The notes below the pieces were generated by a model. That model searched no databases and was not told the DNA's origin. It worked only from the letters and a program-made list of their open reading frames with translations. Shown here in pieces: positions 6,953 through 21,523 of a DNA stretch of 25,944 bases. Origin of the DNA: a virus; the IMG/VR virus record IMGVR_UViG_3300012017_001208, positions 1 through 25,944 of that record. One strand, 5' to 3'. The position numbers and the translations under genes are program-made. How positions within the stretch are numbered: the stretch's first letter is position 1; every line of letters begins with the position of its first letter.

Positions 6953-7610
6953 TTATGAAAGCGTTGAGTTAAGTAGGAATACCCAGGCATCGTTGGTGAT
7001 AACACCAGCATAGGCCATTTTCCAACCCACTGTTGCGTTAAGCGCTAGTGGTGAAGAGAAGATTGGTGGTCTATAGATGAACGAAGAGCTATAACGATCT
7101 TGTTCAACGATACAGTAGGACTCTCTACCGATTACGATTAGTGGATACACATCCGCACCGTTTGCAGAAGCGTTAGGCAACTTGGCTCCAATTGAGGAGA
7201 GCAAGAAGCGAACGTTCGCAATCGCACCATACTCAGATGGCATAGTGGACTGGATAGATGGGTAGTTCCATTTGTAGGTAAATTGAGGAATTCCTTCGAA
7301 CTGACCTTGCAATTGAGTCGAACCCATCGCCAAGTAGGCATCGCGTGTCGGACTTGTGCCAAAGCGATTTTCGCCAATGATACCATCCATAAACTCGTAG
7401 GCGTTGTTGCTACGAAGTTGTTTAACTACATTCACCACGTCGGAGAATGTTAGTTCAGTAGGATTATCAAGATTTGATCCACCAGTACAGTTTACCTGTG
7501 ACATGGTAGAAAGAAGACGATCTCTTGTAAGTTCATCCTCTGTTTGTCTTAAGCTGACACCGAGCCTTTCCGCAGCTGCGTTAAGGACAGGATCTTGACG
7601 TTGTAATGTT
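6953..7610 (-). CDS. Major capsid protein, exon 2 (residues 97-315)
   Basis: This is the C-terminal 218 residues of the major capsid protein; the first base completes the Val97 codon begun in exon 1. The join gives NEQ-V-TLQRQDPVLN then AAAERLGVSLRQTEDELTRD, which reads as a continuous helix typical of N4-gp56-like capsids (DP-x-L then LG-x-S-x-R-x-TED). Further in, FSDVVNVVKQLRSNNAYEFMDG and a C-terminal WKMAYAGVITNDAWVFLL agree with that family. A longer open frame continues upstream to 8335, but that part is intron sequence antisense to the endonuclease gene, not capsid. Downstream lies the 294-aa beta-module protein. Confidence 0.88.
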
Positions 7611-8399
7611 CTTGCTATTACTTTCAGCTCGTCAGGCTTACTGACCATTTTTAGTGGCGGGAGTGGCACTTCAACCTCTCCTCTCATGGTTTCCCATGAG
7701 TTTAGACTATAACTTCGCTTTTTAAAAGCGCCTCTAGGGTTAGTCGTTGCGGCTAGACATTTAATTGTTGATATTGTACAGTAACTGTACCATACAAAAG
7801 GAAGAATTTTATGCCACGTCTTGATTATGTAAGAAAAGAATACCTTTCGACCGATATTGCTTATCTCGCTGGAATTATTGATGGTGAAGGTTGTATCTAT
7901 ATTGGAAATTTTTCTAATAATCCCAAAACAGGGGAACCTTATCACCAAACAAATATGCAAGTCACTTCCACTGATCAACCTTTGATTGATTGGTTGGTTG
8001 TAACTTTTGGAGGTCTTTTTTCCAAAAGAACCGCTAAACAGCATCCTATAAATTCTAGAAAACAAGCCTACATGTGGACAGCTTCTGGTGAGCGTTTGAC
8101 ACATCTTTGTGAGCTTATTTTGCCATTTCTTAAAATCAAAACAAGACAATGTGAAATTATGTTGAAGATGCGAAAAACTTACGATATCCCCCATTTCCAA
8201 AAAGGACATAGTGGCGCACTCACTTTGGATCCCCAAATTAGAGCTTTGCGTCAATCCTATATGGATGAGATTCGTTCTTTGCATATTCGAACATTTTCCC
8301 ATAAAAACAATTAAACCCTTGCCTCGTGTTACCATGCGCTATGCAGCGTTTAGGCTTTCACAGGTATTTACTAGTGGTTTATAGCAGGCAACTATCTCT
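7611..8399 (-). mobile_element. Group I intron in the major capsid gene
   Basis: A 789-base intervening sequence in the leftward capsid gene. P1: exon GCAGGU pairs with intron GCCUGC, ending in the U-G wobble that marks the 5' splice site (8400/8399). P10: the exon 2 start AAC pairs with GUU just before the guide. The intron ends in G (7611). P7: GACUA (7741-7745) pairs with UAGUC (7705-7709) inside the canonical strings GCAACGACUA and UUAUAGUCU. P8 is a hairpin at 7716-7730. P9 is CUCAUGG-GAAA-CCAUGAG (7683-7700). A 10-bp helix, 8306-8315 with 7760-7769, probably P6a, encloses the endonuclease gene. P3, P4 and P5 could not be settled by eye. Confidence 0.88.
7811..8314 (+). CDS. LAGLIDADG homing endonuclease, antisense within the intron
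   Basis: A 167-aa protein starting after AAAGGAAG. It has a single LAGLIDADG motif near residues 17-27 (AYLAGIIDGEGCI), whose acidic residue in DGEG would bind the catalytic metal. One motif implies that it acts as a homodimer. The later parts, with the strand QTNMQVTSTDQPLIDWLV and the stretch KQAYMWTASGERLTHLCELILPFL, match the usual beta-saddle layout. It should cut intronless capsid alleles at the exon junction and so spread the intron. It lies in the opposite direction to the intron and capsid gene, so its mRNA is antisense to the capsid transcript. Its stop codon falls inside the 10-bp helix that closes the loop. Confidence 0.88.
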   Translation: MPRLDYVRKEYLSTDIAYLAGIIDGEGCIYIGNFSNNPKTGEPYHQTNMQVTSTDQPLIDWLVVTFGGLFSKRTAKQHPINSRKQAYMWTASGERLTHLCELILPFLKIKTRQCEIMLKMRKTYDIPHFQKGHSGALTLDPQIRALRQSYMDEIRSLHIRTFSHKNN

Positions 8400-8689
8400 A
8401 CCTGCTCATTAAGCTCAACATAGGTTCCATAGAATCCAACAACCGCGTCAATGTTTACAGCGGTTAATTGTTGAGCTGGGGGAGTTTGTCCCGAATTACC
8501 GATTGGAACAAGTGCTGCTGCCAATGGGTTATATCTGGTCATCCTCAGAGTTGTTCCACCATTTGCCGGCATGGTTCTATAATCCGCGCCGATTGTATGG
8601 ATGAAATAAGGCACAGGAGTACTGAGCAATTTCATCGAAAATGATAGAAGAACCTGTGGAGGCAGAGTAGATGTTGTTGTAATAGACAT
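8400..8689 (-). CDS. Major capsid protein, exon 1 (residues 1-96 plus two bases)
   Basis: This is the N-terminal part of an N4-gp56-like major capsid protein, which forms the icosahedral shell. The ATG follows AAAGGTTAGAT. Residues such as TMPANGGTTLRMTRYNPLAA and GFYGTYVELNEQ match the N-terminal arm and E-loop pattern of the family. Without splicing the frame runs about 60 bases into the intron and stops at a TAG (8339-8341), giving a truncated 116-aa product that lacks most of the shell-forming fold. Spliced exons total 948 bases, in frame: 315 residues. The exon ends in GCAGGT, which pairs with GCCTGC in the intron to form P1. Confidence 0.88.
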
Positions 8690-10747: not shown

Positions 10748-11011
10748 TTAACAACGCCACTTCTTACGAGCTAGCCTTAGACGTGATTTTGGATTTGCTG
10801 CAGCTTTTGGAAACATCTTCATCTGTCCTGCGGATCTAGCGCAATAAGATTTTCTACGTGCTGCTCTTTTTGGCCCTGGGTCTTTCTCTGTTACAGCCAT
10901 AGCAAGCTTAGAGCCTGGATTTTCTCTACGGTAGGAAGCAATTCCTTTGGGATTGAGTCCACCTGATTTTGATTTTCCCTCTTTACGTTGCCAAGCTGGT
11001 GTCTTTGCCAT
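10748..11011 (-). CDS. Small basic phage protein (DUF6321-like), 87 aa
   Basis: The N-terminus MAKTPAWQRKEGKSKSGGLN, followed by PKGIASYRRENPGSK, matches a small basic protein family widespread in phages and annotated, as far as I recall, as DUF6321. It is Lys/Arg-rich to the end (RLRLARKKWRC), so binding to DNA or to the acidic inside of the capsid is likely. The start follows GGAGATTCATC. It is the last of a run of small basic genes located between the terminase/portal genes and the capsid. No catalytic residues are seen. Confidence 0.75.
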   Translation of the reverse strand: MAKTPAWQRKEGKSKSGGLNPKGIASYRRENPGSKLAMAVTEKDPGPKRAARRKSYCARSAGQMKMFPKAAANPKSRLRLARKKWRC

Positions 11012-11029
11012 GATGAATCTCCGAATGCT

Positions 11030-11293
11030 TTAGCGTGATGATTTAGAGCGATTAGATGCATAGGTCTTTACCATCGTAGGTTTGCCTTTTACGCCCTGTT
11101 TTTTAGCCCTTTTGCGCTTTACTGCTGATTGTATTTCAGAAGGAGACATAGTGGTCGCTTTTGAGAGAGGAACGCATTTGGGATAGCCTTTAGAGGCTAA
11201 TTTGGCTTTCGGTCTACCGCATGGGGCGAATGATCCATCTTTCTTCTTGCCGATGTTTACCCATTTTTCAGCGAACCATTTTTTAAGACTCAT
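11030..11293 (-). CDS. Small basic phage protein (KWFAEKWVNI type), 87 aa
   Basis: ATG 11293 is chosen because it follows GGGGAGGGGGTT; the longer open frame to 11395 is occupied by another gene. The first 30 residues, SLKKWFAEKWVNIGKKKDG then SFAPCGRPK, with a conserved Cys-Gly-Arg, match a small protein family (DUF5872-like, from memory) found in phages and large viruses. The remainder is Lys/Arg/Ser-rich. It overlaps the upstream 50-aa gene by 11 bases. Likely a minor virion or DNA-binding protein; function unknown. Confidence 0.75.
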   Translation of the reverse strand: MSLKKWFAEKWVNIGKKKDGSFAPCGRPKAKLASKGYPKCVPLSKATTMSPSEIQSAVKRKRAKKQGVKGKPTMVKTYASNRSKSSR

Positions 11294-11435
11294 AACCCCC
11301 TCCCCGAGCTTTATATGTTTTGACAAGCCAAGCGTTGGCGTATGCGGATGGGTACACCTTGAATTTCTTCTTAGCTTCTGCTTTGACACGTGCATATAAA
11401 GCAGGGTTCGTTGGTTTTGGAGAACTATTTCCCAC
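11283..11435 (-). CDS. Small basic phage protein, 50 aa, GTG start
   Basis: A short gene with a GTG start eight bases after a perfect AGGAG (TTAGGAGCTTTAAACGTG). The protein reads VGNSSPKPTNPALYARVKAE then AKKKFKVYPSAYANAWLVKT and ends YKARGGGYES. The P-x-NPxLYxxVKxEAKxKFxVYPSAYANxW pattern is common among small phage proteins encoded next to DUF6321/DUF5872-type genes. It overlaps both neighbours (11 bases each), as expected in this packed late operon. Function unknown; the basic character suggests a packaged or nucleic-acid-binding protein. Confidence 0.8.
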   Translation of the reverse strand: MGNSSPKPTNPALYARVKAEAKKKFKVYPSAYANAWLVKTYKARGGGYES

Positions 11436-11610
11436 GTTTAAAGCTCCTAAGGGTTAGAGCTAGGTTTGCTCTTTTACCGAGCTTGCCACCTTTTTTTGCA
11501 GCTGATTTTAGTTTAGCAACAGGTATTTTTTTCTCCATGGGTACTTTTAAAGCTTTATGGAGTTTGCCTTTAGACTTAGGATTGAGTGCTTTTTGAATCC
11601 ACTTTTCCAT
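11425..11610 (-). CDS. Small basic phage protein, 61 aa
   Basis: ATG 11610 lies one base after the stop of the 97-aa gene (TAATATGG) and is preferred to the start at 11661, which would overlap that gene. The sequence runs MEKWIQKALNPKSKGKLHKA, then LKVPMEKKIPVAKLKSAAKK, then GGKLGKRANLALTLRSF. The K-IP-x-x-KL-x-x-AAK-x-x-GKLG-x-RA-x-LA-x-TL pattern resembles a family of small, very basic phage proteins seen with structural genes. Probably helical. Function unknown. Confidence 0.75.
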   Translation of the reverse strand: MEKWIQKALNPKSKGKLHKALKVPMEKKIPVAKLKSAAKKGGKLGKRANLALTLRSFKRGK

Positions 11611-11611
11611 A

Positions 11612-11905
11612 TTACTTCTTCTTTTTCGCCATGATCTTGATACCAAGAAGAACTTTTTCACCCTTCATATGTTTTTTAAGTTGTGCTGGGGAATATTTTG
11701 CGTATTCTTTGGCGTGCTCTTTACTCATTCCAGGAAGTTTTTTAGAGCCTTTATCCATCTTCGAAACACTAGCATAAGATTTCTTGCCAGCTTTTTTCTC
11801 CATACCTTCAGACTCATGCGCTCTCGCTTTAAGTGATTGTTTCTTTTTGCCTTTGTGTCGCATTCCCAAAGACTCTTTTAATTTATCATTAAACCCTTGT
11901 TGCAT
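11612..11905 (-). CDS. Small basic phage protein, 97 aa
   Basis: The start follows AGGGAGCGGTAAA. The N-terminus GFNDKLKESLGMRHKGKKKQ, then SLKARAHESEGMEKKAGKKSYA, matches a recurring small phage protein pattern (G-F-N-x-K-L-x-E-S-L-G-M-R, then E-S-x-GMEK). Nearly a third of the residues are Lys/Arg. It has a predicted helix, HAKEYAKYSPAQLKKHMKGEK, and a Lys-only tail. It is translationally coupled to the 61-aa basic protein downstream. A structural or DNA-condensing role is inference. Confidence 0.75.
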   Translation of the reverse strand: MQQGFNDKLKESLGMRHKGKKKQSLKARAHESEGMEKKAGKKSYASVSKMDKGSKKLPGMSKEHAKEYAKYSPAQLKKHMKGEKVLLGIKIMAKKKK

Positions 11906-20870: not shown

Positions 20871-21107
20871 ATGACAAAATCAGATTCTTTTACACCCCAA
20901 CATTTACGTGACATTGTATTTATAGAACAAATGTTCAAACAATTAGACATGAAGGACATTGAGATGTTCCGTAAATTATCTTATCAAGAGCAATGGAGCG
21001 TTTTAAAAATAACCGCATTCATGAACAAAAAATTTGATATTTTAGAAGGTCTAAAGGTTTGGGAAAATCAGTATAAAGACGCAACACAACAAAAGGAAAA
21101 AACATGA
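20871..21107 (+). CDS. Unknown 78-aa early protein
   Basis: Starts after AATTGAGGTAATGAC, the recurrent early ribosome-binding motif. The protein is all-helical and charged: PQHLRDIVFIEQMFKQLDMK, then DIEMFRKLSYQEQWSVLKIT, ending in DATQQKEKT. No membrane span or enzyme motif is visible. It overlaps the DUF4116 gene by 4 bases (ATGA), so both are coupled. No family is recognised. Confidence 0.7.
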   Translation: MTKSDSFTPQHLRDIVFIEQMFKQLDMKDIEMFRKLSYQEQWSVLKITAFMNKKFDILEGLKVWENQYKDATQQKEKT

Positions 21108-21523
21108 TCACAGATAAAGAAATTGCACTTAAAAAAGTCAGACAAGACGGATTAAGACTTCAATTCTTAAGCGACGAGATCAAGAATGATAGGGAAGTTG
21201 TTATTGAAGCAGTTAAACAAAACGGTTTGTCACTTAGATACGCTAGCGACGAGTTAAGGAATGATAGAGAAATTGTTCTTGAAGCTGTGAGAAAAAACTG
21301 GAAAGCACTTTTTTTCGCAAACGAGAAGCTCAAGAATGATAGGGAAGTTGTTCTTGAAGCTGTGAAAAGTGACGGCTATTTACTTGAATACGCAAGCGAT
21401 GAGTTTAGGAATGATAAAGAAATAGTTTACGAAGCAGTTAAACAAGACCGCTATTCACTTGGATATGCTAGTGAGGAGATTAAAAATGATAGAGAATTTC
21501 TTTCGCGGAATTTTAAATTTTAG
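21104..21523 (+). CDS. DUF4116-repeat protein, 139 aa
   Basis: Five tandem repeats of 25 residues with consensus D(R/K)E(I/V)VLEAVKQ(N/D)G-x-SL-x-YAS-x-E(L/I)(K/R)N. Examples are NDREVVIEAVKQNG near residues 28-41 and NDREIVLEAVRKNW near 53-66. At DNA level the period is 75 bases, and copies two units apart are still near-identical over about 25 bases, which suggests recent repeat expansion. DUF4116 repeats are, to my knowledge, typical of amoeba-associated bacteria and protists and are thought to be protein-interaction solenoids. Cytoplasmic, with no signal peptide. Function in a phage is unknown; target binding in the host is inference. Confidence 0.85.
   Translation: MITDKEIALKKVRQDGLRLQFLSDEIKNDREVVIEAVKQNGLSLRYASDELRNDREIVLEAVRKNWKALFFANEKLKNDREVVLEAVKSDGYLLEYASDEFRNDKEIVYEAVKQDRYSLGYASEEIKNDREFLSRNFKF

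What the first reader, a model, noticed from the sequence alone, without database searches (positions are those of the whole stretch)
7611..8399. Major capsid gene split by a group I intron
The N- and C-terminal halves of one N4-gp56-like capsid protein are separated by 789 bases with a stop codon. P1 (GCAGGU/GCCUGC with terminal U-G), P10 (AAC/GUU), P7 (GACUA/UAGUC), P8 and a GAAA-capped P9 are all visible and place both splice sites to the base. The join restores a 315-aa frame. Without splicing the phage has no capsid, so splicing gates particle production and could respond to host state.
Basis: partly seen in the sequence, partly recalled or inferred. Interest (0 to 1): 0.85.

Follow-up and report, generated by a model that had tools for sequence, protein, structure and literature searches.

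The report
Capsid intron with backwards homing nuclease
A phage's main shell-protein gene is interrupted by a self-splicing RNA intron that carries its DNA-cutting enzyme gene on the opposite strand; relatives show this capsid gene is a hot spot for such introns, some with tiny companion inserts that look like introns lacking the catalytic part.

Summary
Confirmed, and larger than described. The N4-gp56 capsid gene (TIGR04387, 146.8 bits after joining) is split by a 789-nt group I intron at 8399..7611 (- strand). Uninterrupted relatives align with the joined exons over 948 nt without a gap (95.6% identity), so the splice sites hold. Helices covary across seven distinct related introns: 241/246 cognate pairs, against 58% when strands are swapped. 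The same layout recurs in relatives: 93 antisense and 4 sense endonuclease ORFs in introns of the homologous gene. One precedent is known (mycobacteriophage LittleE, antisense HEG in a spliced capsid intron). Host-state gating is unsupported: near-identical phages lack the intron. Following relatives led to 28-79-nt inserts at capsid codon 88 with group I P1, P10 and a terminal G but no catalytic core. Each is joined by a covarying helix ending 8 nt before the 5' splice site of the next complete intron (43/43). In complete genes they never occur without a core (42/42). They look like coreless guest introns spliced by the neighbouring ribozyme; inferred, not shown.

The parts
8400..8689 (-). 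Exon 1 of the N4-gp56-family major capsid gene (codons 1-96 plus two bases)
   Evidence: phrog_1357 major head protein, profile 22-121; contiguous with exon 2 in L008-L011
7611..8399 (-). Group I intron, 789 nt, begins AGAG after GCAGGU and ends in G
   Evidence: empty site in relatives; covarying helices; all predicted joins outside L004/L005 restore frame
6953..7610 (-). Exon 2 of the capsid gene
   Evidence: phrog_1357 profile 128-345; joined protein TIGR04387, 146.8 bits, cut-off 60
8400..8405 (-). P1 5' strand (exon GCAGGU, U at the splice site)
   Evidence: sequence; P1 pairs 42/42 across introns, 5 of 6 positions with two-sided changes
8384..8389 (-). Internal guide sequence GCCUGC (P1 3' strand); GUU at 8392-8390 pairs with exon 2 AAC (P10)
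8371..8377 (-). P3 5' strand CCACUAG
   Evidence: P3 46/49 pairs, 7 of 7 positions with two-sided changes
7755..8317 (-). L6 loop insertion (563 nt) that holds the endonuclease gene; P6 closes as GGC/GCC
   Evidence: HEG-free relative L024 has a short P6 loop here
7741..7745 (-). P7 5' strand GACUA
7731..7737 (-). P3 3' strand CUAGAGG
7716..7730 (-). P8 hairpin
   Evidence: P8 28/28 pairs, 4 of 4 positions with two-sided changes
7705..7709 (-). P7 3' strand UAGUC
   Evidence: last pair covaries A-U, G-C, U-A
7683..7700 (-). P9 hairpin CUCAUGG-GAAA-CCAUGAG
   Evidence: P9 47/47 pairs
7811..8314 (+). LAGLIDADG homing endonuclease gene, 167 aa, single LAGIIDGEG motif, ANTISENSE to intron and capsid gene
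   Evidence: phrog_5046 E 3.8e-26; PF00961 22.6 bits, cut-off 23.1; I-MsoI/I-CreI by profile; AF2 pLDDT 86.4, Foldseek I-CreI E about 2e-9; 18 of 29 substitutions versus L012 at third codon position on this strand
7797..7804 (+). Shine-Dalgarno-like AAAGGAAG before the endonuclease ATG
   Evidence: sequence; purine-rich site also before the antisense HEG of L004, L005, L027 and L028
8339..8341 (-). In-frame TAG that would end the unspliced capsid message after 116 codons

Best explanation
The insert is a mobile group I intron. The capsid transcript folds the intron into the group I core (P3-P9), exogenous guanosine attacks at GCAGGU|, and the exons are joined to give the intact N4-gp56 capsid mRNA. 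From the opposite strand the L6 loop expresses a homodimeric I-CreI/I-MsoI-type LAGLIDADG endonuclease, which would cut the uninterrupted capsid allele of a co-infecting relative and let the intron copy itself in. Antisense placement keeps endonuclease translation off the heavily transcribed late capsid message and away from ribozyme folding. Shown here: anatomy, empty site, covariation, antisense ORF, its fold and strand-specific conservation, recurrence in relatives. Inferred: splicing itself, cleavage, homing, and the reason for the antisense orientation.
For: Empty site with 0 gaps over 948 nt; joined protein TIGR04387 146.8 bits; cognate pairing 241/246 versus 774/1336 swapped; joins restore frame at sites A, B, C and D; endonuclease family and fold; intron present or absent among phages 90-96% identical in the gene; 78 of 80 relatives of the endonuclease have a group I P7 core on the opposite strand, 0 sense, all in a homologue of this capsid gene; across all capsid loci 93 antisense versus 4 sense HEG ORFs, 26:3 in capsid-sampled loci only; LittleE capsid intron with HEG on the opposite strand splices by RT-PCR (PMC3706429).
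Against: Rfam RF00028 below its gathering score. No RNA data, no cleavage data. No significant promoter found in front of the endonuclease: 3 promoter-like sites in the region, 2.0 expected. The helix set was assigned by hand. The HEG Pfam match is just under its cut-off.
Confidence: 0.93

Rival explanations
1. Splicing is a regulatory switch that gates particle production in response to host state.
For: The unspliced message stops after 116 codons, so splicing is needed for capsid.
Against: Phages 90-96% identical in this gene lack the intron, and most capsid-sampled genes have no intron. No riboswitch or other sensor was found.
Confidence: 0.04
2. A coreless HEG insertion (ShiLan-type out-of-frame element) or an intein, not an intron.
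For: The insert is in frame with only one stop; ShiLan elements in phage methylases carry hidden endonucleases without detectable introns (PMC11855218).
Against: A complete covarying group I core is present; the endonuclease lies on the opposite strand, so no intein splicing domain can be read with it; the TAG stop is used as a stop elsewhere.
Confidence: 0.02
3. A broken capsid pseudogene, or two separate capsid genes.
For: Two ORFs would be called by an annotation pipeline.
Against: Both exons are 98-100% identical in protein to intact relatives; the same split recurs in other contigs (L006, L012, L027); the joins restore the frame exactly.
Confidence: 0.01
4. TAG is recoded and the whole 579-codon frame is read as one capsid protein.
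For: Only one stop lies in the 789-nt insert in the capsid frame.
Against: TAG ends 6 of 39 putative genes; homologues lack the intervening residues; the open frame is explained by the antisense coding gene.
Confidence: 0.005

Closest known systems
Mycobacteriophage LittleE gp13 major capsid group I intron (PMC3706429; JF937101)
   Same: Group I intron of about 820 nt in a phage major capsid gene with a LAGLIDADG ORF (gp14) on the opposite strand; splicing shown by RT-PCR and N-terminal sequencing. The two endonucleases are distantly homologous (window family versus gp14, best E 2.3e-7).
   Different: In LittleE the P7 core lies upstream of the HEG, which therefore sits in the 3' part of the intron; here the HEG is in L6. 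Phage and host group differ. LittleE was reported as a single case.
I-CreI / I-MsoI homodimeric LAGLIDADG homing endonucleases
   Same: Fold and length (Foldseek E about 2e-9, TM about 0.7; profile match to I-MsoI over nearly the full length).
   Different: About 20% identity. That I-CreI and I-MsoI come from organellar rRNA introns is background knowledge, not tested here.
Antisense HEGs in nuclear rDNA group I introns (Didymium, PMC9548176)
   Same: [quoted passage not shown] expression from its own promoter proposed.
   Different: His-Cys box enzymes in eukaryotic rDNA, some interrupted by spliceosomal introns.
Small degenerate group I introns of fungi (Phialophora PaSSU 67 nt; Arthonia, Porpidia; PMC3160393)
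   Same: The phage mini-inserts resemble them in size (28-79 versus 56-81 nt) and in retained splice-site pairings.
   Different: The fungal ones are in rDNA; PaSSU is reported to have ribozyme activity of its own with longer flanks. The phage inserts are tied by a covarying helix to a neighbouring complete intron.

Membership tests
Group I intron | Last exon base U paired with G of the guide sequence (P1) | tested here: met
   GCAGGU/GCCUGC; P1 42/42 pairs with two-sided changes at 5 of 6 positions across introns
Group I intron | 3'-terminal G, with P10 to the 3' exon | tested here: met
   Intron ends ..GCAAG|AAC; GUU/AAC
Group I intron | P3-P7-P8 core in pseudoknot order, plus P9 | tested here: met
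   Order conserved in 7 introns; P3, P6, P8 and P9 covary
Group I intron | Uninterrupted homologues with the exact empty site | tested here: met
   L008-L011: 948 nt, 0 gaps, 95.57%
Group I intron | Rfam RF00028 gathering score | tested here: not met
   24.4 bits versus 50. Not a defining biological feature: the RT-PCR-proven LittleE intron also fails
Group I intron | Guanosine-dependent self-splicing | not testable with these tools
   needs RNA
LAGLIDADG homing endonuclease (I-CreI type) | LAGLIDADG motif with catalytic acid | tested here: met
   LAGIIDGEG; G25-E26-G27 invariant in 36 relatives
LAGLIDADG homing endonuclease (I-CreI type) | Fold | tested here: met
   AF2 pLDDT 86.4, I-CreI top Foldseek matches
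LAGLIDADG homing endonuclease (I-CreI type) | Pfam PF00961 gathering score | tested here: inconclusive
   22.6 bits versus 23.1
LAGLIDADG homing endonuclease (I-CreI type) | Cuts the intronless allele | not testable with these tools
   needs protein
N4-gp56 major capsid protein | TIGR04387 above cut-off | tested here: met
   146.8 bits versus 60, residues 4-310 of the joined protein
LittleE-type capsid intron | Antisense LAGLIDADG HEG in a capsid-gene group I intron | tested here: met
LittleE-type capsid intron | HEG in the same loop | tested here: not met
   L6 here, 3' of P7 in LittleE

The most novel reading that the evidence does not exclude
In relatives of this phage the capsid gene carries a 28-79-nt coreless group I mini-intron at codon 88: only P1, P10, a terminal G, and a helix that docks it beside P1 of the next complete intron, whose ribozyme would splice both in cis. 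The mini-intron would make the complete intron indispensable, because exact loss of the latter would leave the capsid frame broken. The window's own intron belongs to the helper class but has no mini-intron.
Probability: 0.75. Interest if true: 0.9.

Novelty: new variant of a known kind. Interest (0 to 1): 0.72.

Why it matters
It turns a single curiosity (LittleE) into a family: one structural gene repeatedly invaded, at several sites, by group I introns that nearly always carry their endonuclease on the opposite strand. That makes two questions testable: how an antisense endonuclease is expressed against a very strong late transcript, and why this orientation is favoured. The coreless mini-inserts, if spliced by the neighbouring ribozyme, would be a natural case of one group I ribozyme removing two introns and a possible addiction mechanism for a selfish intron.

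Tried and rejected
Rfam at gathering threshold on the window and on 11 relatives: nothing, including the proven LittleE intron, so judged insensitive. Translational bypass (T4 gene 60-like) for the codon-88 inserts: rejected as first choice, because the triplet before the resumption point is not a Gly codon and varies, while the last base is always G and P1/P10 covary. Read-through of the inserts: rejected, because lengths are 0, 1 and 2 mod 3 and the frame closes within 1-21 codons. MAFFT alignment A1 misaligned P3 by one base in L005, L027 and L024, so helices were assigned by hand and checked with a strand-swap control. Promoter scan before the endonuclease: not above chance. Distant endonuclease relatives in isolate phages (five annotated records) look like free-standing genes on the same strand as their neighbours, without a core motif (the unannotated L278, shows no core either), so they do not inform orientation. 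A collection scan for the P1 pattern gave mostly chance matches; four loci held the capsid gene.

Full report
Observation. The capsid gene is on the - strand. Exon 1 is 8689..8400, the insert 8399..7611 (789 nt, 263 x 3), exon 2 7610..6953. Joining gives 315 aa that match TIGR04387, N4-gp56 major capsid, over residues 4-310 with 146.8 bits (cut-off 60); apart, the exons match phrog_1357 at profile positions 22-121 and 128-345. The insert has one in-frame stop, TAG at 8341-8339, and TAG ends 6 of 39 putative genes, so recoding is not a way out.

Is it an intron? A search of IMG/VR found close relatives without the insert: L008-L011 align with the joined exons over 948 nt at 95.57% with no gap, L007 at 92.6%, L013-L017 at about 90%. 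The same intron is in L006 and L012 at the same site. More distant introns lie at the same site (A: L004, L005, L027) and at three others in the same gene (C: L028; B: L018, L020; D: L024, without endonuclease). In every case where the flanking exons are clean the predicted join restores the capsid frame. Helices assigned by hand in seven distinct introns pair in 241 of 246 cognate positions; with 5' and 3' strands swapped between introns the figure is 774 of 1336. P1, P3, P5, P6, P8 and P9 all have two-sided changes, as does the last pair of P7. The helices were chosen by eye, so the swap control, not the cognate count alone, carries the argument. Rfam RF00028 reaches 24.4 bits (gathering 50), and at gathering it also misses the LittleE intron, whose splicing was shown by RT-PCR (PMC3706429).

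On the + strand, 7811-8314 encodes 167 aa with a LAGIIDGEG motif: phrog_5046 E 3.8e-26, PF00961 22.6 bits, just under cut-off. A profile of relatives matches I-MsoI and I-CreI, and the AlphaFold model (pLDDT 86.4) matches I-CreI by Foldseek at E about 2e-9, TM about 0.7. It has a Shine-Dalgarno-like AAAGGAAG. Between the window and L012, 18 of 29 substitutions fall at third positions of this frame, so the + strand is under protein-level selection. The gene sits in the L6 loop, antisense to the intron.

How general is it? A profile scan for the endonuclease kept the 80 best loci. A P7 descriptor (3 chance hits in 23 Mb of shuffled sequence) lies close upstream on the opposite strand in 78 of them and on the same strand in none. 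All 80 lie in a homologue of this capsid gene, many with two or more introns. That sample is selected by the endonuclease, so the capsid gene was also sampled directly. In the 108 complete genes of the capsid-sampled loci, 36 have a core; the endonuclease ORFs there are 26 antisense and 3 sense, and over all loci 93 and 4. The four sense ones (L110, L129, L150, L167) lie in longer open frames of 311-374 codons. Orientation is thus strongly biased, not absolute. The known precedent is LittleE: its record shows gp14 on the - strand inside the capsid gp13, and the paper describes it. Searches of the paper library found no description of such a family, but that library lacks most subscription journals.

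Mechanism. Best supported: a self-splicing, endonuclease-mobilised group I intron. Why antisense? A plausible reason, inferred, is that the late capsid transcript is the strongest in the cell, and reading the endonuclease from the other strand separates it from capsid expression and ribozyme folding. No promoter stands out above chance.

Mini-inserts in relatives (not in the window). In L004 and L005 exon 1 carries a 53- or 31-nt insert after codon 88. Collecting all such loci gave 44 distinct capsid genes with inserts of 28-79 nt at that codon. Codon 88 is GGT in 44 of 44, against 23 of 126 genes without an insert. The insert ends in G in 44 of 44. A GCCGUA, GCCAUA or GCCGAA in the insert pairs with UACGGU, UAUGGU or UUCGGU of the exon, and the bases just before it pair with the start of the next exon (P10 of 4 or more pairs in 43 of 44). 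Lengths are of all three phases, and without removal the frame closes within 21 codons. These are the marks of group I splice sites, but there is no room for P3-P9. In complete genes the insert occurs with at least one full core in 42 of 42; genes without it have a core in 47 of 124 (p 1e-14 counting loci as independent, which relatedness makes optimistic). In capsid-sampled loci only, it is 19 of 19 versus 15 of 85. Two contigs end too early to tell (L187, L287). The 3' part of the insert pairs with 9 exon nucleotides that end exactly 8 nt before the 5' splice site of the next complete intron: 8 or 9 of 9 paired in 43 of 43 assignable loci, swapped mean 5.1, falling off sharply downstream of that position. 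It holds whether the next intron is at site A (35), C (5) or B (3); for C and B the pairing to the site-A position is only 4-6. The helix therefore abuts P1 of the neighbouring intron. The simplest reading is that the neighbour's ribozyme removes the insert too. This is inference from sequence. Small degenerate group I introns are known in fungal rDNA, where PaSSU is reported to have activity of its own (PMC3160393), so independent activity cannot be excluded.

Verdict. The window feature is a real group I intron with an antisense LAGLIDADG endonuclease: a known kind (LittleE), here with the gene in a different loop and shown to be a large family. The mini-inserts are the more surprising thing, and need an RNA experiment.

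Noticed in passing
L004, L005, L041, L044, L047, L050, L053-L056, L061, L062, L064, L068, L072, L078, L079, L085, L097, L102, L111 and others (capsid codon 88): 28-79-nt out-of-frame inserts with P1, P10 and terminal G but no group I core, tied by a covarying helix to the next complete intron; never found without a core in a complete gene.
   Followed up: yes
L018/L019 versus L020-L023, site B intron: Nearly the same intron core holds either a 134-aa single-motif HEG or a 307-aa double-motif HEG, both antisense: the HEG has been swapped inside the loop.
   Followed up: partly
L110, L129, L150, L167: The four exceptions: LAGLIDADG ORFs in the sense orientation inside capsid-gene inserts, in open frames of 311-374 codons; at L129 and L150 the P7 descriptor found no core.
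   Followed up: partly
L035, L065, L096, L105: Capsid genes cut into four or more segments, suggesting three or more introns in one gene.
   Followed up: no
L264, L267, L271: Three of nine capsid relatives in GTDB genome contigs are binned as Chlamydiota (Simkaniaceae, Parachlamydiaceae, Parachlamydia); could hint at the host or be mis-binning.
   Followed up: no
L007:2990-3010: An intronless relative has GAGCAAACT where the intron-bearing phages have GAGCAGGT: an allele that could not form P1 and may resist the endonuclease.
   Followed up: no
L030 (Stenotrophomonas phage StenR_269): A LAGLIDADG gene annotated 'intron homing endonuclease' lies directly upstream of an intact capsid gene on the same strand, with no group I core motif.
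   Followed up: partly
L273 (Sphingobium phage Lacusarx): A distant HEG homologue overlaps an annotated tmRNA gene.
   Followed up: no
window 10748-11905 (-): Four consecutive small, very Lys/Arg-rich ORFs of 78-121 aa without assigned function.
   Followed up: no
window 21104-21523 (+): ORF made of repeats of about 23 residues (NDREVVLEAVKxxGxxLxYASDEL).
   Followed up: no
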